The notes beneath the pieces were generated by a model. The model was not told the DNA's origin. It did no database searches and saw only the letters and a list, made by a program, of their open reading frames with translations. Source: a virus. From it: a DNA stretch of 21,244 bases. Shown here in pieces: positions 6,376 through 16,350 of this stretch; positions within the stretch are counted from its first letter, which is position 1, and each line of letters starts with the position of its first letter. The stretch spans positions 1 through 21,244 of the IMG/VR virus record IMGVR_UViG_3300047562_004352. One strand, given 5' to 3'. The translations under genes were made by a program, and so were the position numbers.

Positions 6376-8148
6376 ATGGGAATAAAATTTACTGAATTAC
6401 CAATTAAGGCCGGAACAGACATGGACAGCACTTGGGTCTTTGCTGTTGCCACATCGACGGAAACTGAGCAGTTAAACTGGGAAGAGTTGCAGCAATCTTT
6501 TACAGGTTTAAGGGGCCAATCTAATTCTTTAAGTTTAATCGGCGGCACTTCGACAGATTACGGAATTACGGTTAGTGGAAATGGATTTTTAGGAATAAAC
6601 AAAACTGATCCAAGTTATGTTTTAGATATCGGCGATCAGGGCGGAGTAACTAATCCGCAAGCCAGAATAACAACGAGCGCTACGAATAGGTCAGCTTCAT
6701 ATACCCTAGCTGATTCAAGTATATTCTGGAAAACCACTAAAAAAGCAAGCGACACAGATTATTACATTGAAGTGTCAGAAGATGACAGCAATTATACCGG
6801 AGCAATCAATATAGATAAAAACGGTAATGTTGGTGTATTTGATGGTTCGTTTTCTGTACCTAATAAATTTTATGTATACAACGGAGATATTGGATTTCAA
6901 AGTGGTGCGTATAAAATAACTTTTGATCCAAGTGATAATTTGGAAATATCTACAAATACCGATGCTCTAAGATTAAACTACAATAATAATAATGGAGTTA
7001 TTTTAGGCAGTGATGTTGTTTATGTAGATAATTCGACTGCGCCTAAAGTCGGCATCAACACTTCAGTTCCAAATTATACTTTAGACGTATATGGATCTGG
7101 AATTTTTACTAGATTTAATAACGCGCTGACTTCATTAAGTTCTTTGGCCATAACAAATACTTCTACAACTGGTTATATAACTTTATCAACTCTTGGTTTT
7201 AATTTCGGGCCATCTGCTGGAAATAGTGAAAACAATATTTACATGCAAACGTCTACAAAAAATGTGGGTTTGGGTACTATTTCTCCAGATAATAAATTAC
7301 ATGTTAAGGCTACTGGATCTTTGAGTAGAATGGCCAAATTCGAAAATGGCAACAACGCTATTTCCGAAGTATTTCAAACTAACAATTATATTACTGGACC
7401 ATATAGTGGGCCAAGAAGCACTTTATATACTTTTGGTCGGGCAAACGAAAGTGGACCAACTAGTAATATAAGTAAATGGGCAATAGGTTTATATGACGAT
7501 GGCCCAACTAACACATATGATGATGTTTTTGTGTTTAGGGTGGATGCGTCAATGTCTGATTCTGCGATTAAAGCTTATTTAGATAGAGACGGCGATTTTG
7601 ATATTAAGGGTTCATACACTTCAAATACAGGAAATTACTGCAAAGGAAAATTTGTCCAAACACACCAAACAAGAGTAACTGGAGATTGTTTATATTTTAA
7701 TCCTTTTTATCCTAATTCTAATACTAATCCAAGTGGTCATAATGATTTATCGGCTCCATTTTGCGTTACTCCATACGCCGGAAGAATAGAAAAGATACAG
7801 ATTTTTTCTTCAGATCAAGACATGGCTTTTTCTACCACCAATGGAGGTAGATTTGAAATATCGGTTATTACGCCATCAAATGATGCAAGCGCTAATAATT
7901 TTGTTTCTGGTTTTTATGTAAGCCCTACCTCTCCAGCGACTAGTTTGCCTATTTCTGGCATAGTATCTCAATTTAGTTTGGCGTCTATGGCAAATACAAA
8001 TCAAGTATATACATATTCCACATTTTCAGGTAGTCCTGCTTTTACTGCTGGCCAGCTTTTGCAATATAGGATTACTGACGGAGATCAAAGGTCAAGCTAT
8101 CAACCCGCATTTACTGTAGTTTCTACAATTTCTTATACTGTAACATAA
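6376..8148 (+). CDS. Tail fibre / adhesin-like protein (590 aa)
   Basis: Probable trimeric receptor-binding fibre. The N-terminus (MGIKFTELP, then D-x-T-W-V-F-A-V and a short helix, residues 1-45) resembles the attachment segment found at the start of many phage fibre proteins. The shaft (about 50-320) has three copies of a G-I/L-N/G-x-x-x-P-x-Y/K-x-L-D/H-V-type repeat at about residues 71-86, 224-242 and 296-315, common in phage and bacterial fibrous adhesins. The C-terminal 160 residues or so contain PFCVTPYAGRIEKIQIFSS and a run of beta strands, compatible with a jelly-roll head; this part would contact the receptor. No C-terminal S74-type intramolecular chaperone is visible, although such repeats are often followed by one. 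It begins one base after the preceding stop and overlaps the next gene by one base. Fibre role is likely; receptor unknown. Confidence 0.7.
   Translation: MGIKFTELPIKAGTDMDSTWVFAVATSTETEQLNWEELQQSFTGLRGQSNSLSLIGGTSTDYGITVSGNGFLGINKTDPSYVLDIGDQGGVTNPQARITTSATNRSASYTLADSSIFWKTTKKASDTDYYIEVSEDDSNYTGAINIDKNGNVGVFDGSFSVPNKFYVYNGDIGFQSGAYKITFDPSDNLEISTNTDALRLNYNNNNGVILGSDVVYVDNSTAPKVGINTSVPNYTLDVYGSGIFTRFNNALTSLSSLAITNTSTTGYITLSTLGFNFGPSAGNSENNIYMQTSTKNVGLGTISPDNKLHVKATGSLSRMAKFENGNNAISEVFQTNNYITGPYSGPRSTLYTFGRANESGPTSNISKWAIGLYDDGPTNTYDDVFVFRVDASMSDSAIKAYLDRDGDFDIKGSYTSNTGNYCKGKFVQTHQTRVTGDCLYFNPFYPNSNTNPSGHNDLSAPFCVTPYAGRIEKIQIFSSDQDMAFSTTNGGRFEISVITPSNDASANNFVSGFYVSPTSPATSLPISGIVSQFSLASMANTNQVYTYSTFSGSPAFTAGQLLQYRITDGDQRSSYQPAFTVVSTISYTVT
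6586..6633 (+). repeat. Fibre shaft repeat, copy 1
   Basis: Encodes FLGINKTDPSYVLDIG, the first of three related shaft motifs in the fibre gene. The others are at 7045-7101 and 7261-7320. Spacing between copies is uneven (about 153 and 72 codons), so they mark homologous turns of the shaft rather than a tandem DNA repeat. Confidence 0.7.
7045..7101 (+). repeat. Fibre shaft repeat, copy 2
   Basis: Encodes KVGINTSVPNYTLDVYGSG. It shares the G-I-N-x-x-x-P-x-Y-x-L-D core with copy 1 and the P-x-x-x-L-x-V core with copy 3. Confidence 0.7.
7261..7320 (+). repeat. Fibre shaft repeat, copy 3
   Basis: Encodes NVGLGTISPDNKLHVKATGS. This copy is closest to the common VGIGT-x-x-P-x-x-K-L-x-V form of the motif in fibrous adhesins. 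Confidence 0.7.
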
Positions 8149-8150: not shown

Positions 8151-8993
8151 GCTAATTTCATAAATTATAGAAACCTTGATTTTAAGCTAAATAGCCAAAA
8201 TTTTTATGCTACGCAAATCAGTTTGTCTGCACAAGCTTCTGTTGAACCTGTTTTATTAAGCGATGGAAGCTTATTGAATTACGCCCCACAGGGCGCATTG
8301 GTTGGAAGCTTGCAGTGTGAATTTTATCTTACCGGCTCTTTACCTTCTTTTTTAACAGTTACAAATAACGATGAGTCCGCAATAACAGCAAAATTTGCTG
8401 GAGTAGATATAACTGGAGTTTATCCAAAATCTATATCATTTAATGTTGAACCTTTTCAGCCAGTTCTTATCTCTACTGAATTTGACTGGTATGGAAATGT
8501 AAAAGTAGAAGATTTTATAGAGCAGAGCGTCACAGATCGGCAAAATAAATCTTCTCCGAATTATATAGCTAGCGCTTATAAGTCGTATTTAGATACAGCT
8601 GACATCTTTAATTTTGCTGGAAGCGCGGGAAGCGATGGTGCAGCGGGTTATCTTGGTGATAGCATCGGCAATATCGTTTCTTTTAGTTATAACTCTACTT
8701 GTGATAGACCAGCTTTTTATAATGTCGATGAAATCTTGCCTTTCAGAGTTGGAAAACTTAATAAAGCTAATCGAGTAGAATTGAAATCAAATTACTTAGG
8801 TAAACTGATATCTATAAACGGTAAAACAGCGGCTACAACTATTTATTTAAAAGATTTTTATGGAACATCTTTGCAGTCATTTTCTATTAGTGGTTTTGTC
8901 GGAAGTCAAAATTATGAAGTTTCAGAAGGTCAATATCTATTAAATTCGGCGACAATAGATCAAACTATTCCAAGAATTAAAACATTAGTTTAA
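8148..8993 (+). CDS. Minor tail protein, likely paralogue of the 304-aa protein (281 aa)
   Basis: No named family recognised with certainty. The N-terminal half (about 1-125) can be aligned by eye with the first half of the product of 5460-6374: both begin with I-N/T-NY-x-N, have a strand ending in F/R-YLT, and reach a stretch of S-I/L-x-x-N followed by P-x-x-V/I and YGN. The second half has IGNIVSFSYNSTCDRPAFYN, corresponding loosely to the NSTTNR region of the other protein. In the middle is a Gly/Ala/Ser-rich flexible loop (GSAGSDGAAGYLGD). Beta-rich composition and position in the tail-tip cluster suggest a structural protein that may cap or connect the fibre encoded just before it. The paralogy is my reading and needs a profile alignment. 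Start fixed by one-base overlap with the fibre stop. Confidence 0.55.
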   Translation: MANFINYRNLDFKLNSQNFYATQISLSAQASVEPVLLSDGSLLNYAPQGALVGSLQCEFYLTGSLPSFLTVTNNDESAITAKFAGVDITGVYPKSISFNVEPFQPVLISTEFDWYGNVKVEDFIEQSVTDRQNKSSPNYIASAYKSYLDTADIFNFAGSAGSDGAAGYLGDSIGNIVSFSYNSTCDRPAFYNVDEILPFRVGKLNKANRVELKSNYLGKLISINGKTAATTIYLKDFYGTSLQSFSISGFVGSQNYEVSEGQYLLNSATIDQTIPRIKTLV

Positions 8994-8995
8994 TG
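8991..8995 (+). promoter_or_regulatory. TAATG stop/start overlap (281-aa gene to gpM-like gene)
   Basis: Third instance in the window of a one-base TAATG overlap, again with no Shine-Dalgarno-like sequence upstream. Coupled translation of the two genes is inferred. Confidence 0.6.
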
Positions 8996-10852
8996 AGTTC
9001 AATTATATCAGGTTTAAATATTAAAAATATTTATGAGTACGACTCAACTCAATCGTATAATAAATATGATATTGTCGATTATCAGTTGAACACCGGAATA
9101 TCTGTTTATCCAAATTATACTGGACTTGGGCAGACTGGGATTTCATTTTGGTTTGATAATGATACATTCAATGAATTTAAAACAAATTCAGATGATTATG
9201 TAACTGGATGGATTAATAAAATAAACAATGAAATTAATTTGTATCAAAATGATTTTGAATTAACTCCATATATAGATTTTAATTATAATTACCTTAATTT
9301 AGTTGGCGAGCAATTTCTAAGCGGTAGCGGTTTCGACTTGTATACCAAAACTATATTCGTATGTTTTAACGCCTCAAAACATCCAAAAAATTCAGCTCAA
9401 AATATTTTAAAATTTGATAATCCAAATGCCGTAAGTGATGAATCTGGATATCTGAGGATTTCTGGCCGAGATGCTTTAGGATCTTCTAAAGTTTTTATTG
9501 ATAATAATTCTTTCAGCGCTGTCTTTTCTCCATATGAGCAAGCAAATATTCTAACGCTTTTAGTAAGCGGAACTTCGGTTAGCGGGCCTTCTGGGCCCAC
9601 CGTTCAAATAAGACAAAATGGATATTATATTGGAACGCAGACTGATACGTATAGAGGTTGGGCTTCTGGTTTTTTTAAATTAGGTGGAAACGATGAATAT
9701 AATTTAGGTTTAAAGTATTATGACGTTTTTTGCTTTTCTGGTTTGTTAAGTGAAACAGAATTAGATTATTATGAAAAATATTTATTTGAAAAATATTCTG
9801 ATAAGGGAGGTTTGTATTGGGCCAAACAAGATGTTCCGTCTTCTGAGTTTTATGCTCCTACCACTTATACGGGACAAAATTATTGGACTAGAGATATTAA
9901 CGAATTATTTTCTTTGAGTTATGAATCTAGAGCAGACTTTTCAGCTAAATTATCCGCTTTAAATTTTGGAGACGGCTATAAAACAAATATAGTAAATAGT
10001 ATAAATAGCTTAAACGCTGATTTTGAATTGGTTTATGATGGGTTAACAGACATTCAAGCTAAAGCTCTTATAACTTATTTTGAAAATACTCCAGAGGCTA
10101 AAGTTAAAAGCGAATACGAAGGTTATACTGGAGTTAATTTTAATCTATTTACGCCATACAAACAAAATGCTGAAGTTTATTTTCTGGACATAAGTCATTC
10201 GACTCCAGATGCGGACGTTAATAAAGTTGTTATAAAAGCAGAGTCTCTTTACGCCAGTAATTTAAATTACAAGGGAATGTTCGTTGAGCTTGACGAAGTT
10301 AATATTAGAACGTATCGCAATGACTTAACTAATTTCGATTATCATGATGTAGTTTATTTTGATAGTTCATCTTTTAATTCTAGAGGATATTATTTTTATA
10401 CGGGCTCATATAATTTGCGTAGATTATCTTTAGATAATAATCCAACTGGAGCTAATTCTTATTTCACTAAAAACTTTTATTTTAAACCTGATCTTGATTA
10501 TGATTTAAATTCTCAATTGAGATTAATCACTCAGGAGTATAAAAGTTCAACGAAGCAGTATTTAAAAGACGGCATCAACTATAATGTTTTAGAGTTTAAT
10601 TTAAAATTTAGCAATCGTTCGAATAAGGAAGCTCTTGCTATTTTAAAATTTTTCGATGATAAAGCTGGATTTAAAACATTTGATTATACGTTGCCTCAAC
10701 CATATAATAAAACGATACTTGTTTATTGTCCAGAATGGGGCCATACTTATAATTTTTATAATAATCATGACATTACTGCTAAATTTATTGAATTTAAAGG
10801 AAAGTTTACCGCAGAAACCCAGTTTAATACAAAAATAACTTTTATAGAATAG
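8993..10852 (+). CDS. gpM-like minor tail protein with added lectin-like domain and two gpM-type domains (619 aa)
   Basis: Lambda gpM (about 110 aa) sits in the tail tip between the tube and gpL. Here the signature occurs twice. Residues about 300-405 contain FGDGYKTNIVNSIN followed by a strand, GLTDIQAKALITYFE and F-x-L-F-TPY. Residues about 505-619 contain YLKDGIN, then SNKEALAILKFFDDKAGF and PQPYNKTILVYCPEWGHTY. The N-terminus carries extra modules. Residues 14-30 (YEYDSTQSYNKYDIVDY) look like the start of a CBM5/12-type carbohydrate-binding domain, whose second half (GLYWAKQ to YWTRDI) appears after residue 272. Between them, about 49-271, is a concanavalin/LamG-like jelly roll ending in the typical SETELDYYEKYLFEKYSDK. 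Adjacent to gpL as in lambda, apart from one intervening gene. The gpM assignment is likely; sugar binding is inferred from fold only. Confidence 0.72.
   Translation: MSSIISGLNIKNIYEYDSTQSYNKYDIVDYQLNTGISVYPNYTGLGQTGISFWFDNDTFNEFKTNSDDYVTGWINKINNEINLYQNDFELTPYIDFNYNYLNLVGEQFLSGSGFDLYTKTIFVCFNASKHPKNSAQNILKFDNPNAVSDESGYLRISGRDALGSSKVFIDNNSFSAVFSPYEQANILTLLVSGTSVSGPSGPTVQIRQNGYYIGTQTDTYRGWASGFFKLGGNDEYNLGLKYYDVFCFSGLLSETELDYYEKYLFEKYSDKGGLYWAKQDVPSSEFYAPTTYTGQNYWTRDINELFSLSYESRADFSAKLSALNFGDGYKTNIVNSINSLNADFELVYDGLTDIQAKALITYFENTPEAKVKSEYEGYTGVNFNLFTPYKQNAEVYFLDISHSTPDADVNKVVIKAESLYASNLNYKGMFVELDEVNIRTYRNDLTNFDYHDVVYFDSSSFNSRGYYFYTGSYNLRRLSLDNNPTGANSYFTKNFYFKPDLDYDLNSQLRLITQEYKSSTKQYLKDGINYNVLEFNLKFSNRSNKEALAILKFFDDKAGFKTFDYTLPQPYNKTILVYCPEWGHTYNFYNNHDITAKFIEFKGKFTAETQFNTKITFIE
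9137..9805 (+). other. Concanavalin/LamG-like domain inside the gpM-like protein
   Basis: The segment opens with GISFWFDND and continues with alternating strands, a Q-N-G-Y turn (VQIRQNGYYIG), and the closing pattern of a strand (YYDVFCFSG), then L-S-E-T-E-x-x-x-x-x-x-YL-x-x-KY. The same closing pattern ends the insert in the gpL-like protein. This is typical of bacterial and phage LamG/concanavalin-like domains. No catalytic residues were assigned. Confidence 0.6.
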
Positions 10853-10853
10853 A

Positions 10854-13538
10854 ATGACTACGGATTATTATACAGGAGTGGAGTTGTTTGAAGTGCCAAC
10901 GGGGTTTGGTGGCTATACTGGTATAGCGGTTACAAATAGTGGTGATTTTCCTGTCTTTTATACAGCTATTATATCTGATACGTCTGTAAATGTCGATTCG
11001 GCCGATGCAGAAGATGGCGAGCTTTATAATACTTTATTTATATCAAATAATGTTGATTATGTTGATTCAAATTCCTATGAATTAAGTTTTTCGGTTAATC
11101 CAAATGATTCTGGAATTTTTTATGTATTGCATAAACCATTTTCTACTTTTGTAGCAGGATCAGAAACCGAAGCGGACGAAACCGCAACATTGTCTATATA
11201 TTCTAATTCTTCTTTAGGTGATAGTGATGAGCTGATAACAATTGATGTTACTGGTCAGAGAGTCACTGGTTTTCAAGAGCCATCGAGGGTAGCGGGTTTT
11301 TATGCAATAAAAAATTATCGCGGAGATGATGGATTTAATTTAAATTTTAATTGGTCTTTTGTTAGTGGAAACACTTATGTGACTGGATTTAAATTAGATT
11401 TATCTAGTACTTCTGATTTTCTCAATCCTATAGGTGGTCCTTATTATCTAGAAGCTTTAAAAAATACATCGCTATCCTTGCCTGAATATGGAAAATACGA
11501 TGGTTTTATTGGTGAAAATTTTTCTATTACTGTTTCTAATTTGCCTATTTCTCAATCAATATATTCCAGGATAACAGCTATAAATCCAACTGGCGGAACT
11601 GGGGAATATTGTTATCCTACCGGATTTTCAGTTGCTCAACTAAATTTAGATAATAAAACTTATTCCGGACTTCATCCAGAACCGGGGGAAAATTTAGGTT
11701 TTACCGCAGATTTTTTAAATTTGGAATACGAAGCGGATTTTGCTGAAGACTTTGATATAGCTAAGTTTTTATATGAATCTAATGGCAATTCTTATGATTT
11801 TAGATTTTATTCCGGAGCTAGAATAACTTTTTCTCCAGCAAACAATGAAATGGGCGTTTTAGCCGCTTCTTCGATTAATAATGGCGCATTAAATTTAGTC
11901 AAGCCAGAAGATGGATTTTATTTCAATACCGGTAATAATAAACTTTTTAAATTAGAGCTTGAATTTAGAAATATGAAGGTTTTAGGGTTTGGCGGGGCGA
12001 ATGCTGTTTTTAATGCTGACGGAACTATTCAATCTTCTCAGCAAGGTGGGCCAATTTTTAATTTTGATAATTTAGATTATGTAGATTCTGATGACCCAAA
12101 TAACACAAGAGTTTTTTCTTATTATATAAAAAAGGATTTGTTTAGTTTATTTTATGCCGGTTTGGGCGGCAGCGATATTTATTATCTAACAAATGAGGAA
12201 ACGGGAGAACAAGACCCAAGAGAAGTAAAAGAAATTAGTACGCTGGAAGAAACAAACCTTGTCAATGTAACAAATTCAAATAACATAAATTCAGACAGAG
12301 CCGAATCTGGCCAACTAGCTTCGCCAGATACAGAAATTTATCCAAATATATATTTAAATTTTATACAAGAAACACCGCAAACAGATCTTTTGGGCTTTAG
12401 GTTCAGAACCGATAACATTTCTGCATCGGCAAACACGACTACAAATCAATGGGTTTGTTCTACAGATAGCAGTTTTAAATTACAAAATCCTGCTAGTGTT
12501 TTAACAATAAGAGAGGCTTACGGTAGAAAATTTTTTGAATTGGAGAGGGAATCTGGCATGATTAAACAGATCGGTGCAAAAAAATATCTTCCAATAAGAA
12601 ATAAACCGAGCTATGTTAATTTTGTTTTTGCTTTAGCTAGGGATAGTTTATCGGGAACTACGGAAAGCGCTGCATACAGAAGTATGATAGACAGTTTCTC
12701 CAATATGCATAAATTTGTTGGTATCGGTGGACCTTACAATCCGGTTGGAGGGGATTATGCACCTATTTATAATTTAAAAACTAGTGGTAGTTTATGTAAA
12801 GCGATTTTTAACGGTGGCATATTAAATAATAGTTATTTTTTGGGTAAAACTAATTGGATTTATAACGCTAGCGTTTTTGATTACGTTAATCCGTCAGTCC
12901 GCTCTCATGTTGGCGTTTATCCATATATGGAAAATTCTATAGACACGGGGCAGTACAAAGGTAATCCAAATATCTTAAATCCATTTTCTTTATTTAATAT
13001 AAGAAATTTAGGAAGTTTAAATAACCCCGATGGTCCTGAAGATTTTATTTTAACTGGTGCTGGTAGCGGTTCATCGGATTTGCCATTGCAATTAGTTAGT
13101 TTTTTCTTTGTGCAAATGCATATAACAAATGTTTATATGCCAATGGCGCATGAAACTAATTACAATAGATTTCTTTATGACACTTATGTTAATGGGATAC
13201 TAACTAGTCGTTTTAACTTATCTGCAAATCTAAAAGCTTTTTCGACAGTTGCTTCGCCGCATCAATATAAAATTTCCTTAAATAATGACAGTACTACTAA
13301 TGATCGTTTATTTTTATTTGATTATACATATGGCTATGGAAATAATCCTGAAGATCGAAATTTTAAATCGAATCAGTCTTTGGGGTATTTAGTTAAAGAT
13401 CTCGCGCCGCTTTTGTTTAAAACTACAGATCCTGATTTTCAGATACTACAAAGCACTTTAGATGAGAATCAACCTCCAACTTATGTAAAATTCCCTGTTC
13501 CGATAGCTCATAATTTTTTAAATTTATACACAAACTGA
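10854..13538 (+). CDS. Large tail protein with Ig-like and FN3-like N-terminal domains (894 aa)
   Basis: Not part of the lambda set. Residues about 20-140 look like an Ig-like domain of the ASH / choice-of-anchor-D type: an N-x-G-D-F-P-V-F strand, NPNDSGIFYV, then TATLSIYSNSSLGDSDELIT and a closing IDVTGQ. Residues about 155-270 look like a fibronectin-III-like domain, with F-N-W near the start and YSRITAINPTGGTGEY near the end. Residues 290-700 are not recognised; they are rich in Asn, Gly, Phe and Tyr. A region near 770-830 (LYDTYVNGIL and later RLFLFDYTYGYG) resembles the C-terminal half of a LamG-like jelly roll, tentatively. There is no signal peptide or membrane segment. It lies between the gpM-like and gpL-like genes (gaps of one base each side), so it is probably a tail-tip decoration or fibre. 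Binding partner unknown. Confidence 0.6.
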   Translation: MTTDYYTGVELFEVPTGFGGYTGIAVTNSGDFPVFYTAIISDTSVNVDSADAEDGELYNTLFISNNVDYVDSNSYELSFSVNPNDSGIFYVLHKPFSTFVAGSETEADETATLSIYSNSSLGDSDELITIDVTGQRVTGFQEPSRVAGFYAIKNYRGDDGFNLNFNWSFVSGNTYVTGFKLDLSSTSDFLNPIGGPYYLEALKNTSLSLPEYGKYDGFIGENFSITVSNLPISQSIYSRITAINPTGGTGEYCYPTGFSVAQLNLDNKTYSGLHPEPGENLGFTADFLNLEYEADFAEDFDIAKFLYESNGNSYDFRFYSGARITFSPANNEMGVLAASSINNGALNLVKPEDGFYFNTGNNKLFKLELEFRNMKVLGFGGANAVFNADGTIQSSQQGGPIFNFDNLDYVDSDDPNNTRVFSYYIKKDLFSLFYAGLGGSDIYYLTNEETGEQDPREVKEISTLEETNLVNVTNSNNINSDRAESGQLASPDTEIYPNIYLNFIQETPQTDLLGFRFRTDNISASANTTTNQWVCSTDSSFKLQNPASVLTIREAYGRKFFELERESGMIKQIGAKKYLPIRNKPSYVNFVFALARDSLSGTTESAAYRSMIDSFSNMHKFVGIGGPYNPVGGDYAPIYNLKTSGSLCKAIFNGGILNNSYFLGKTNWIYNASVFDYVNPSVRSHVGVYPYMENSIDTGQYKGNPNILNPFSLFNIRNLGSLNNPDGPEDFILTGAGSGSSDLPLQLVSFFFVQMHITNVYMPMAHETNYNRFLYDTYVNGILTSRFNLSANLKAFSTVASPHQYKISLNNDSTTNDRLFLFDYTYGYGNNPEDRNFKSNQSLGYLVKDLAPLLFKTTDPDFQILQSTLDENQPPTYVKFPVPIAHNFLNLYTN

Positions 13539-13539
13539 T

Positions 13540-15510
13540 ATGTCTGATTTATTTTTATTAAGAAATACTGAAATTATAGATTTATTCGAAATTAAGCTTG
13601 GAGATTTTGAGGGTTACTTTTATTTTCATGGATCTAAAAATCTAAACAGGGATATTATTTTTAAAGGGAAGAATTATTTATATATTCCATGTGAGATATC
13701 CAGTTTAGAATATAATTCAGAAGGCAAGCAAAGCAGACCGACACTAACCATTTCTAATACAAATAATTTTATCACTAATTTAATAAAAGATAGAAATGAT
13801 CTATTAGGAAGAAATTTATATCGTAAAAAAATTTTTGCGAAAGATCTAGACGGCGAAAATTTTGGCGAAATAAATAAAAATCTTTTAGGCTCTTATTCGT
13901 TTACTGACTTTTTGCATGTCGACTCCTTCGTTATTAATAAAAAAAATATGGAGGACAAGGAAAAAGTCGAATTCACCTTAGCGAACATTTTAGATATAGA
14001 CGGATTGACTGTCCCTACTAGAAAAGTTTTTAATGATTTTTGTGCGTGGCAGTATAGAGGCGATGGATGTAATTACGGTAGATTAACAAATTATAATGGG
14101 CCGACTCTTATAATAGGAGAGGCAGATTATGATAGTTTATCTGATATAACTACTGAATTTTCAATAGATACAAATTTAATTTTATGGCTGAATCAAGATG
14201 GTCAAACTTTTGGTAGCGAACAGCAATTAAATAATAAAAAGGGGGATAGCATTGGTGGTTTTCCGGTTTTAACATCTTGGCTCAATCAAGCCTCGACAAT
14301 TAATCTTTCAATTCCATATGCATTGCCAACCGTTTCTATAGGTGGGCAACCAAAAAAATTTATAAATTCTGGAAGATATAATAATAAACAGGGTATTTAT
14401 TTTTTACCAGATTCGCCAGCAACGGATAGTATTTCTATAACAAAAACTGGTGGGGACTTTACTGGAGAGGATTACACTGTATTTTATGTTTCTGAAATGG
14501 TGACAAAAGTTTATAATCCAGGAAATGGATATCATGCTGCAAGTCGAACTTTGGGGGGGAAACCTAGAGATATTTTGCGTGGAGACACTAATACTTTTTT
14601 TCTTGGGTACTACGCAAATCAATTAGATAAAATGTGGCTGGGAGGTAATTGGTTTTATAATTCAAATTTAAGTTTTAATGCGTCTTTGGACGGTAATGTT
14701 ATGGAGTTGCAGAATGTGATTGATACACAAATCGCTGGCCAAACGGAGCAAGCACAGCTTTCTAATTCATACTTTAATAAATTAAGGGCTTATTGTGGAG
14801 TTATGCCTTCGAGCACTTCAAGCGAAACTCAATTTTATAAAAATGGCTACTTGCTAAAAAGCGATTCTGGTTATACATATAATTCTACATCACAATTTGG
14901 AATCAATATTAATTCTGATACAACTAGTGAATGCGTAGTTTATGAGATGATTGTTTTTAATACGGCCTTAACTCAGGATCAAATTAGAGCGGTTTTTTCT
15001 TATTTATCTAATAAATATAAACTCCCGATAGAGTCTTTGTCTGTGAGGAATTTAGATAAGGATAGTTCTGCTTTTTTTCAGGGTTATGAAGATGGAAATT
15101 TAGGCGTTCCGATGGCCGATGAAAACAATAAATTATTTTTAGAAAGCCAGCAGTCTGAATTTTTTAACTATAATTCTTATGGCTTAAACGATTTAGTTTA
15201 CAAAGGAGACTATAGCGACAACGTAAAATACGCAAAAGGAGATTTCGTAAAAATTGATCCAGAAATCAATTTTGATTTTAATCAAGAAGTTATTAAAAAA
15301 ACAAATGAATTACCGGCTAGATTTTTTGTTTGCATAAATGATAATGGATCTGAGGGATTACATCCATTAAAATTTAAGAGTATTTGGGTTGAAGACAAGT
15401 GTTCAAGAAAATTAAGCGGATGTATTTTAAGGTTTAGAGGAGAAGTGCCCACGCCTTTTGGCGGGTTTCCTGGAACGGTTAGTTATGACTATAGACTGCC
15501 AAATACATAA
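13540..15510 (+). CDS. gpL-like tail-tip protein with iron-sulfur cysteines and a large domain insert (656 aa)
   Basis: Lambda gpL (232 aa) joins the tail tube to the gpJ hub and holds a 4Fe-4S cluster on four cysteines. Residues 1-170 match gpL: LFEIKLGDFEGYFYF, a D/N-I-x-F-K-G-x-x-Y strand, R-P-T-L-T-I-S-N, a D-x-L-G-x-x-x-x-R-K-K segment, and V-x-F-x-L-A-N-I-L-D-I-D-G. The cluster cysteines are C168 and C177 (CAWQYRGDGC) and C621 and C628 (CSRKLSGC), followed by I-L-R-F-R-G and PFGGFPG. Pair spacings (9 and 7) equal those I recall for lambda (C173/C182 and C205/C212), but the pairs are 444 residues apart instead of 23. The insert holds a concanavalin/LamG-like domain (about 205-497) and a CBM5/12-like segment (about 548-620). 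The gene overlaps gpK by 26 bases. The gpL assignment is firm; the insert's function is inferred. Confidence 0.88.
   Translation: MSDLFLLRNTEIIDLFEIKLGDFEGYFYFHGSKNLNRDIIFKGKNYLYIPCEISSLEYNSEGKQSRPTLTISNTNNFITNLIKDRNDLLGRNLYRKKIFAKDLDGENFGEINKNLLGSYSFTDFLHVDSFVINKKNMEDKEKVEFTLANILDIDGLTVPTRKVFNDFCAWQYRGDGCNYGRLTNYNGPTLIIGEADYDSLSDITTEFSIDTNLILWLNQDGQTFGSEQQLNNKKGDSIGGFPVLTSWLNQASTINLSIPYALPTVSIGGQPKKFINSGRYNNKQGIYFLPDSPATDSISITKTGGDFTGEDYTVFYVSEMVTKVYNPGNGYHAASRTLGGKPRDILRGDTNTFFLGYYANQLDKMWLGGNWFYNSNLSFNASLDGNVMELQNVIDTQIAGQTEQAQLSNSYFNKLRAYCGVMPSSTSSETQFYKNGYLLKSDSGYTYNSTSQFGININSDTTSECVVYEMIVFNTALTQDQIRAVFSYLSNKYKLPIESLSVRNLDKDSSAFFQGYEDGNLGVPMADENNKLFLESQQSEFFNYNSYGLNDLVYKGDYSDNVKYAKGDFVKIDPEINFDFNQEVIKKTNELPARFFVCINDNGSEGLHPLKFKSIWVEDKCSRKLSGCILRFRGEVPTPFGGFPGTVSYDYRLPNT
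14161..15030 (+). other. Concanavalin/LamG-like domain inserted in the gpL-like protein
   Basis: The domain starts at NLILWLNQDG and continues through a strand with W-L-N, then G-I-Y-F-L-P and DYTVFYVSEM. A QFYKNGYLL turn follows, and it closes with VVYEMIVFNTALTQDQIRAV plus YLSNKY. These are the usual landmarks of this superfamily, in the usual order. It sits between the second and third cluster cysteines of gpL and shares its closing pattern with the domain at 9137-9805. Confidence 0.68.
15181..15399 (+). other. CBM5/12-like segment in the gpL-like protein
   Basis: Residues about 548-620 read D-Y-S-D-N-V-K-Y-x-x-GDFV-x-I, an insert, FFVCIND, then HP and W-V-E-D directly before C621. The Y-x-x-GD-x-V / aromatic / P-x(n)-W layout resembles small carbohydrate-binding modules of the chitinase type. 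The match is by eye and the segment is short, so this is tentative. Confidence 0.4.
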
Positions 15511-15811
15511 AAATTTATTGGACGAATTAAAAAAAATATCTATAGATTCGGATGAGGAAATTTGTGGATTTGTAGTGGGGGGTAATACATTTATAAAATG
15601 CGAAAATATACATCCAAATCCAAAAGATTATTTTTTAATATCTCCAAACGAATATATATGGGAAGATGATATTATGCTTTTTCATAGTCACCCAAAACAT
15701 ATTGATATTAATGGATTTTCTGATTGGGACATAGAAAATCAATTTTATTTTCAGTTAAAAATGTTATTATATAGTGTAAAACATAATGAATTTTACTTTA
15801 GAGATTTATGA
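15485..15811 (+). CDS. gpK-like JAMM metallopeptidase-fold protein (108 aa)
   Basis: Lambda gpK has an N-terminal JAMM/MPN domain followed by an NlpC/P60 domain; only the first is present here. Numbered from ATG 15485, the likely catalytic glutamate is E25 in EICGFVV. The zinc site is H67-S-H69, with S79 and D82 in FSDWD. There are nine residues between the second His and the Ser, where the usual motif has seven, so the loop is slightly long. A longer reading from TTG 15458 is possible, but those extra residues lie inside the gpL end and do not look like part of the domain. The start overlaps gpL by 26 bases, and the stop overlaps the gpI start in ATGA. Role: tail-tip assembly, probably processing or a chaperone-like function. 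A cell-wall hydrolase activity would have to come from elsewhere. Confidence 0.8.
   Translation: MTIDCQIHKNLLDELKKISIDSDEEICGFVVGGNTFIKCENIHPNPKDYFLISPNEYIWEDDIMLFHSHPKHIDINGFSDWDIENQFYFQLKMLLYSVKHNEFYFRDL
15808..15811 (+). promoter_or_regulatory. ATGA start/stop overlap (gpK-like to gpI-like gene)
   Basis: The gpI-like start ATG (15808-15810) overlaps the gpK-like stop TGA (15809-15811) by four bases in total. A weak purine stretch (AGAG) lies upstream. This is the usual arrangement for coupled translation. Confidence 0.65.
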
Positions 15812-16350
15812 TAGATATAACTTTAAAAGGCATTTTAGGGAAAAAATTTGGGCAGGACTGGAAATTGGAAGTTTCTTCGGTTTTAGAAATTTTTGAAGCT
15901 ATTGAGGCCAATAATTCAACTGTGTCGAAATATTTTATGACTATAGAAAAGATAATTACGCATTTTATAGTTTTTATCAACGGAAAGGCTATGCCATCAT
16001 ATTTGATAAACAGCAAAATATTAAAAAACGGTGATGATGTTAAGATTGTTCCGATTTTACAAGGTGGAGGAATAGAGCTTTTAATTATTGGAATTATTTT
16101 AATGGTAGCGTCTTTTGTATTAATGAAGGTCTTGAGCCCCAAATCTCCAAAAGACGTGAAGACTGGATCTACTGTATTAGGGTCGATTAGAAATGTATTG
16201 AGTAGAAATATAGTTGTGCCATTGGGTTATGGAAGGTTGCGTATTGGAAGTGCTGTAGTATCTAATGATATTCGCGTTAGTTATTTAGATTCGGATTTAA
16301 AAACTTTTGATAGGTTTTTATATACAAGACTGGATGCAACAGAGCTATAA
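15808..16350 (+). CDS. gpI-like tail assembly protein (180 aa)
   Basis: Lambda gpI acts with gpK, gpL and gpJ in building the tail tip. The N-terminal 85 residues have the beta-grasp (ubiquitin/ThiS-like) pattern of the family: ITLKGILGKKFGQDWKLEV, a helix (LEIFEAIEAN), a central strand (HFIVFINGKAM), and NGDDVKIVPILQGGG. A hydrophobic helix (residues 90-109, ELLIIGIILMVASFVLMKVL) follows. The C-terminal part has VPLGYGRLRIGSAVVSNDI, matching the VP-x-x-YG-x-x-R-x-G-x-x-V-x-S signature of gpI proteins. It starts in the ATGA overlap with the gpK-like gene and is separated from the gpJ-like gene by two bases, preserving the lambda L-K-I-J order. Confidence 0.82.
   Translation: MIDITLKGILGKKFGQDWKLEVSSVLEIFEAIEANNSTVSKYFMTIEKIITHFIVFINGKAMPSYLINSKILKNGDDVKIVPILQGGGIELLIIGIILMVASFVLMKVLSPKSPKDVKTGSTVLGSIRNVLSRNIVVPLGYGRLRIGSAVVSNDIRVSYLDSDLKTFDRFLYTRLDATEL

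What the first reader, a model, noticed from the sequence alone, without database searches (positions are those of the whole stretch)
14068..15402. About 440 residues, including a lectin-like domain, inserted between the two cysteine pairs of the gpL iron-sulfur site
C168/C177 and C621/C628 keep the pair spacings of lambda gpL and the flanking CAWQYRG and CxxxxxxC-I-L-R-F patterns, yet the loop joining them grows from about 23 to 444 residues. A concanavalin/LamG-like domain plus a CBM5/12-like segment would then project from the metal site in the tail-tip core. The cluster may act as a clamp that tolerates insertion, making this loop a natural display site for host-binding modules.
Basis: partly seen in the sequence, partly recalled or inferred. 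Interest (0 to 1): 0.78.

Follow-up and report, generated by a model that had tools for sequence, protein, structure and literature searches.

The report
Lectin inserted in phage iron-sulfur loop
An uncultivated lambda-like phage carries a sugar-binding-type domain and a second small domain inside the short loop that joins the two halves of its tail-tip iron-sulfur site, and a survey shows that phages have stuffed unrelated domains into this same loop several times, so the loop looks like a natural display position.

Summary
The ORF at 13540-15510 is a lambda gpL homologue (PF05100, 1e-36). C168/C177 and C621/C628 match lambda C173/C182 and C205/C212, and 443 residues replace lambda's 22 between C2 and C3. 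Every complete relative examined keeps all four cysteines. They flank a retained lambda linker motif (lambda PAVADEYDQ, window GVPMADENNK): a ConA/LamG-like lectin (aa 189-513, model pLDDT about 88-98) and an ~80-residue beta module (aa 535-615). Compact (~22), module-only (~120-157), nested-repeat (~210-302) and lectin-plus-module (385-525) loops all occur. On a tree of the gpL core the lectin forms were gained once, inside module-bearing gpL. Unrelated inserts occupy the same loop in cultured Synechococcus phage S-CBS4 (260 aa) and, in cryo-EM structures, in the RcGTA and R4C hubs, where the cysteines still hold the cluster. A homologous lectin also sits on the gpM-like neighbour. The lectin is the fastest-diverging part of gpL (30% versus 69-74% identity for the core). 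Adhesion is inferred, not shown, and cysteine distances could not be measured. Verdict: real, a new variant of a known kind.

The parts
13540..15510 (+). gpL homologue with loop inserts (656 aa)
   Evidence: PF05100 1.1e-36, phrog_18 3.6e-48, lambda gpL 8iyk_L 1.6e-21
13540..13995 (+). aa 1-152, HDI/attachment domain of gpL
   Evidence: Foldseek 8iyk_L 1.9e-11 and T1 9l9p_J 1.2e-8; pLDDT about 71-93 over most of it
14041..14070 (+). first cysteine pair C168/C177 (CAWQYRGDGC)
   Evidence: invariant in 79/79 aligned gpL; aligns with lambda C173/C182
14104..15078 (+). site-1 insert, ConA/LamG-like lectin domain, aa 189-513
   Evidence: pLDDT mostly 88-98; Foldseek to ConA-like lectin domains in PDB and BFVD; present only in one clade of 32
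15103..15132 (+). retained lambda linker motif GVPMADENNK, aa 522-531, between the two inserts
   Evidence: lambda PAVADEYDQ; P524 and D527 nearly invariant in 79 gpL
15142..15384 (+). site-2 insert, ~80-residue beta module, aa 535-615 (CBM5/12-like pattern only)
   Evidence: pLDDT mostly 85-95 with a dip at 574-593; present in 77 of 79 gpL; Y564, P609, W616 invariant, G567 75/77
15385..15501 (+). second cysteine pair C621/C628 and gpL C-terminal tail (EDKCSRKLSGCILRF...PFGGFPGT)
   Evidence: invariant cysteines 79/79; matches lambda KDKCSKCLSGCKFR
9197..9796 (+). lectin-like N-terminal domain of the gpM-like protein (ORF 8993-10852), homologous to the gpL site-1 lectin
   Evidence: hhalign 95.5%, E 1.6e-8; site-1 HMM hits the gpM-like ORF in L240, E 2e-4
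9869..10789 (+). two tandem gpM-type domains in the same gpM-like protein
   Evidence: hhalign between halves 99%, E 7.7e-18; PF05939 1.4e-15

Best explanation
This is a gpL tail-tip (baseplate hub) protein of an uncultivated lambda-like siphophage. The short loop between its two cysteine pairs has become a platform for host-facing modules. Shown here: the four cysteines and the linker motif are retained, and two separately folding modules sit on either side of that motif. The ~80-residue beta module came first; the ConA-like lectin was added once, later. Inferred: the four cysteines still coordinate a [4Fe-4S] cluster as in lambda gpL and the RcGTA/R4C hubs. [quoted passage not shown] There the lectin helps reversible adhesion to surface glycans, alongside a homologous lectin on the gpM-like ring protein and the central gpJ fibre.
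For: Domain and cysteine match to lambda gpL. All complete relatives keep four Cys. Site lengths: site 1 is 3-8 residues in compact, 9-53 in module-only and 284-421 in lectin forms; site 2 is 5 versus 76-126. Tree of gpL core without inserts: lectin forms are one clade 100/97, nested among module-only forms. AF2 of the window protein with 79 homologues: mean pLDDT 81, hub, lectin and site-2 module confident. Foldseek: lambda gpL top hit, then ConA-like lectin domains. Within the lectin clade mean identity is 69% hub, 74% Cys1-2, 30% lectin, 48% site-2, 72% Cys3-4. Independent inserts in the same loop: S-CBS4 260 aa, nested repeats in L203/L222/L250/L254/L265/L267. Solved precedent: RcGTA and R4C hubs (R4C C147/C157/C244/C251). 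Lambda iron-binding domain on the outer surface.
Against: No iron or glycan measurement exists. The model tool returns no coordinates, and aa 153-181 around C168/C177 has pLDDT below 50, so cysteine convergence was not seen directly. No Pfam lectin or CBM family matches. Prochlorococcus phage MED4-184 has a gpL-like protein that ends before the cysteines, so a cluster is not obligatory for such hubs. Fast divergence of the lectin could be relaxed constraint instead of receptor-driven change.
Confidence: 0.72

Rival explanations
1. The inserts are structural decorations or docking surfaces: the gpL lectin packs against the homologous lectin of the gpM-like ring or holds the extra tail proteins (window 10854-13538, 6376-8148) and does not touch the host.
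For: A homologous lectin on the adjacent gpM-like protein; several large tail proteins of unknown role encoded next to gpL; the site-2 module is fairly conserved (48%), as an internal contact would be.
Against: The site-1 lectin is the least conserved part of gpL (30%); the lambda domain that bears the loop is on the outer surface (PMC10721106).
Confidence: 0.18
2. The cluster is lost: the four cysteines now form disulfides or a zinc site that merely ties the loop ends.
For: Four invariant cysteines alone do not identify the ligand; some gpL-like proteins lack the cysteine domain altogether.
Against: Spacing and flanking residues match lambda, T1, F2-pyocin and hub gp21 proteins; lambda, RcGTA and R4C hubs with these motifs hold Fe-S clusters (PMC10721106, PMC7296036, PMC10276861).
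Confidence: 0.07
3. The insert is an intein or an enzyme (for example a GH16-type glucanase sharing the ConA-like fold).
For: Large in-frame insert at a conserved metal site; the ConA-like fold includes glucanases.
Against: No intein or hydrolase Pfam match in any of 22 members; no GH16 ExDxxE motif in 32 site-1 inserts and no HN end; the linker motif sits inside the supposed insert.
Confidence: 0.03

Closest known systems
Lambda gpL (8iyk_L; C173, C182, C205, C212; PMC10721106)
   Same: Same family, attachment domain, cysteine spacings, flanks and linker motif; same gene order M-L-K-I-J.
   Different: Lambda has 22 residues between C2 and C3; the window has 443 with two folded modules.
RcGTA hub g13 (PMC7296036) and roseophage R4C hub (PMC10276861)
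   Same: The iron-binding domain is split by an inserted oligosaccharide-binding domain in the same loop, with the cluster seen by cryo-EM.
   Different: A single ~80-residue insert, different Pfam families (PF09931 + PF09356 for R4C), no detected sequence similarity to the window inserts.
Synechococcus phage S-CBS4 gp036 (cultured; 465 aa)
   Same: gpL-type cysteine pairs and the linker motif (AIANEFDQPI) with a 260-residue loop, the insert lying at site 2.
   Different: The insert is flanked by alanine-rich, helix-like stretches and has no detectable relation to either window module.
Evolved Dit proteins of lactic-acid-bacteria phages (e.g. PMC10688798)
   Same: Carbohydrate-binding modules inserted in a conserved tail-tip protein.
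   Different: In Dit, not in a gpL Fe-S loop.

Membership tests
gpL / Phage_tail_L (PF05100) | Attachment (HDI) domain matching the family profile | tested here: met
   126.6 bits against a cut-off of 25; Foldseek to 8iyk_L 1.9e-11
gpL / Phage_tail_L (PF05100) | Four cysteines in two pairs, C-x8-C and C-x6-C | tested here: met
   C168/C177 and C621/C628; invariant in 79 aligned gpL
gpL / Phage_tail_L (PF05100) | Position between gpM and gpK/gpI/gpJ | tested here: met
   gpM-like PF05939 upstream with one extra gene between; JAB-type gpK (phrog_30), gpI and gpJ downstream
gpL / Phage_tail_L (PF05100) | Binds a [4Fe-4S] cluster | not testable with these tools
   needs purified protein or cryo-EM; cysteine distances are not returned by the model tool
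ConA-like lectin / LamG jelly roll (site-1 insert) | Jelly-roll fold | tested here: met
   pLDDT mostly 88-98; BFVD phage proteins annotated ConA-like lectin/glucanase, TMt up to 0.65
ConA-like lectin / LamG jelly roll (site-1 insert) | Match to a curated lectin or LamG sequence family | tested here: not met
   no Pfam match in 22 members up to E 5
ConA-like lectin / LamG jelly roll (site-1 insert) | Glycan binding | not testable with these tools
   needs a glycan array or similar
CBM5/12 (site-2 insert) | Sequence family match | tested here: not met
   no Pfam match in window or module-only gpL
CBM5/12 (site-2 insert) | Small beta module with Y..GD and W pattern | tested here: inconclusive
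   Y564, G567, D568, P609, W616 conserved and short strands predicted; no structural hit was isolated for this segment
RcGTA/R4C-type hub (PF09931 + PF09356) | Family profile match | tested here: not met
   window matches PF05100 only, R4C matches PF09931/PF09356; similar in design, not filed as a member

The most novel reading that the evidence does not exclude
The gpL/hub iron-sulfur site is a general insertion-tolerant clamp: across many siphophages the cluster holds a loop in which unrelated domains (lectins, beta modules, repeats, possible coiled-coil stalks, OB-like domains) are swapped for host contact. That would explain why a surface-exposed Fe-S cluster of unknown function is kept.
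Probability: 0.45. Interest if true: 0.72.

Novelty: new variant of a known kind. Interest (0 to 1): 0.58.

Why it matters
The role of the Fe-S cluster on the outer surface of the lambda-type tail tip is stated to be unknown (PMC10721106). A set of natural gpL proteins with 22 to 525 residues in the same loop, all retaining the four cysteines, makes a concrete hypothesis testable: the cluster is a staple that lets host-binding modules be plugged in. It also names a second modular display site on siphophage tail tips besides Dit and the central fibre.

Tried and rejected
A genome-contig scan with the clade alignment gave no relative; a mixed gpL alignment was too diverse to search with. Relatives cannot be drawn for a virus record. 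The first AF2 run with 22 sequences modelled the hub poorly (mean pLDDT 60); 79 sequences fixed this. Intein, GH16 enzyme and chimeric-assembly ideas were rejected. A shared origin of site-1 and site-2 modules was rejected (hhalign 0.3%); likewise site-2 versus the gpM-like N-terminus (0.5%). Cultured phages were searched with several gpL forms; none has the window architecture, and S-CBS4 turned up only through the C-terminal piece. Most solved-structure matches of the lectin are receptor-binding domains of clostridial neurotoxins and parasite trans-sialidases at 9-16% identity; this is fold-level similarity of the ConA class and is not evidence of toxicity.

Full report
Check of the observation. 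The ORF 13540-15510 encodes 656 aa without interruption. It is a lambda gpL homologue by profile (PF05100 E 1.1e-36; phrog_18 3.6e-48) and by sequence against solved structures (lambda gpL 8iyk_L E 1.6e-21 on aa 13-181 plus a weak second stretch on aa 617-643). The cysteines sit at 168, 177, 621 and 628. Lambda gpL, read from J02459, has CTWTYRGDECGYSGPAVADEYDQPTSDITKDKCSKCLSGC with 22 residues between the second and third cysteine; the window has 443. A tail-tip operon surrounds it: tape measure, three further tail proteins, a gpM-like protein, an 894-aa protein, gpL, a JAB-type gpK, gpI, gpJ.

The architecture is inherited, not an assembly accident. IMG/VR gives 32 loci at first pass, one of them identical to the window and the rest 41-49% identical, and a wider set on a second pass. 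No cultured phage in the 50,697-record collection covers the protein: 1219 records match, none over 80% of it, and the insert alone matches none. Of 101 loci found by patterns that do not include the cysteines, every complete gpL keeps all four; the two exceptions are a contig-end truncation and a frameshifted copy. In the 79-sequence alignment the four cysteines are invariant, while the other cysteines of the window protein vary. The extra loci were found with a motif that includes C177, so they do not count as independent proof of that cysteine.

Two inserts, not one. The lambda linker motif PAVADEYDQ survives as GVPMADENNK (aa 522-531) and P524 and D527 are nearly invariant. Measured around it, site 1 (aa 181-522) is 3-8 residues in compact gpL, 9-53 in module-only gpL and 284-421 in the window clade; site 2 (aa 532-615) is 5 residues in compact gpL and 76-126 in the others. 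A few gpL have further beta-repeats nested within the site-2 region, giving loops of about 210-302 (L203, L254, L222, L250, L265, L267). On a tree built from the gpL core without the inserts the lectin-bearing forms are a single clade (100/97) nested among module-only forms. The order of events is therefore most simply module first, lectin later and once. The root and the place of the two compact sequences are weak because their branches are long.

Structure. With 79 sequences in the alignment AlphaFold2 gives mean pLDDT 81: attachment domain mostly 71-93, lectin mostly 88-98 apart from a poor stretch at 381-409, site-2 module mostly 85-95 with a dip at 574-593. The segment with C168/C177 (153-181) is below 50 and C621-C628 about 62-74, as one may expect for a metal site modelled without metal or partners. 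Foldseek puts lambda gpL first (1.9e-11) and T1 second among solved structures, then ConA-like jelly rolls at 9-16% identity. Among viral predictions it finds many phage proteins named concanavalin A-like lectin/glucanase or LamG. No Pfam family recognises either insert, so 'CBM5/12' for site 2 rests on a Y..GD..W pattern only.

The indirect test of convergence comes from published cryo-EM. The RcGTA hub is described as ion-binding 143-167 and 250-263 with an oligosaccharide-binding domain 168-249 between, and the R4C hub as ion-binding 142-161 and 244-266 with 162-243 between; in both, four cysteines hold the cluster (PMC7296036, PMC10276861). The R4C sequence read here has C147, C157, C244, C251. 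Insertion between the pairs with the cluster kept is thus a solved fact in a related hub family. [quoted passage not shown] The LSH1 paper calls the gpL C-terminal region a focus of hypervariability close to the cell wall (PMC13243795).

A further apparently independent case was found in a cultured phage. Synechococcus phage S-CBS4 gp036 (465 aa) has the gpL cysteines C166, C175, C436, C443, keeps AIANEFDQPI, and carries a 260-residue loop whose middle is flanked by alanine-rich, helix-like stretches; neither window module profile detects it. Counting RcGTA/R4C, S-CBS4, the site-2 module and the window lectin, at least four apparently unrelated insert types occupy this loop. Absence of sequence similarity does not prove separate origin for the small beta modules.

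Function. Within the lectin clade mean pairwise identity is 69% for the hub, 74% around Cys1-2, 68% for the linker motif, 72% around Cys3-4, 48% for the site-2 module and 30% for the lectin. The lectin diverges fastest, as host-facing domains do, though relaxed constraint would look the same. The gpM-like protein upstream has an N-terminal domain homologous to the gpL lectin (hhalign 95.5%, E 1.6e-8; a site-1 HMM hit to it in L240). Long lectin-length N-terminal regions occur on the gpM-like protein in the sister group whose gpL lacks the lectin, so gpL may have acquired a module type already used on the tip; direction of transfer was not tested. The best explanation is a surface-displayed adhesin platform held by the Fe-S site, with iron binding and glycan binding both inferred.

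Novelty and score. The member is new and uncultivated; the principle has a structural precedent in RcGTA/R4C and a relative in evolved Dit proteins. New are the two-site arrangement around a conserved motif, the lectin-in-gpL form, the graded series, and the evidence of repeated use. I found no paper in the library that describes the gpL Fe-S loop as a general insertion site, but the key 2013 gpL Fe-S paper is not held.

Noticed in passing
window 8993-10852: The gpM-like protein is 619 aa with a lectin-like N-terminus and two tandem gpM-type domains (hhalign 99%, E 7.7e-18). Three copies would make a pseudo-hexameric ring, a possible fit to the 6-to-3-fold step at the tail tip.
   Followed up: partly
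window 15485-15811: gpK is a short JAB-domain protein (Prok-JAB below cut-off; phrog_30 4e-13) overlapping the end of gpL; at about 108 aa it is too short to carry the NlpC/P60 half usual in gpK.
   Followed up: partly
window 10854-13538: An 894-aa protein between gpM-like and gpL, with no family match, conserved in relatives but varying in length.
   Followed up: no
L104:5953-6525 and L105:3850-4422: Prochlorococcus siphophages MED4-184 and MED4-117 have a 190-aa gpL-like protein that ends before the first cysteine, so the cluster domain is absent.
   Followed up: partly
L301:717-2114: Cultured Synechococcus phage S-CBS4 gpL has a 260-residue loop between its cysteine pairs, with an insert flanked by helix-like alanine-rich stretches.
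   Followed up: partly
L250, L265, L267, L222, L254, L203: Beta-repeat units (RTIVFSTGATLKL... type) nested inside the site-2 region of gpL.
   Followed up: partly
window 15808-16350: gpI matches ThiS (1.7e-5), above its cut-off, and Lambda_tail_I only below its cut-off (0.0058); it sits next to a JAB protein.
   Followed up: no
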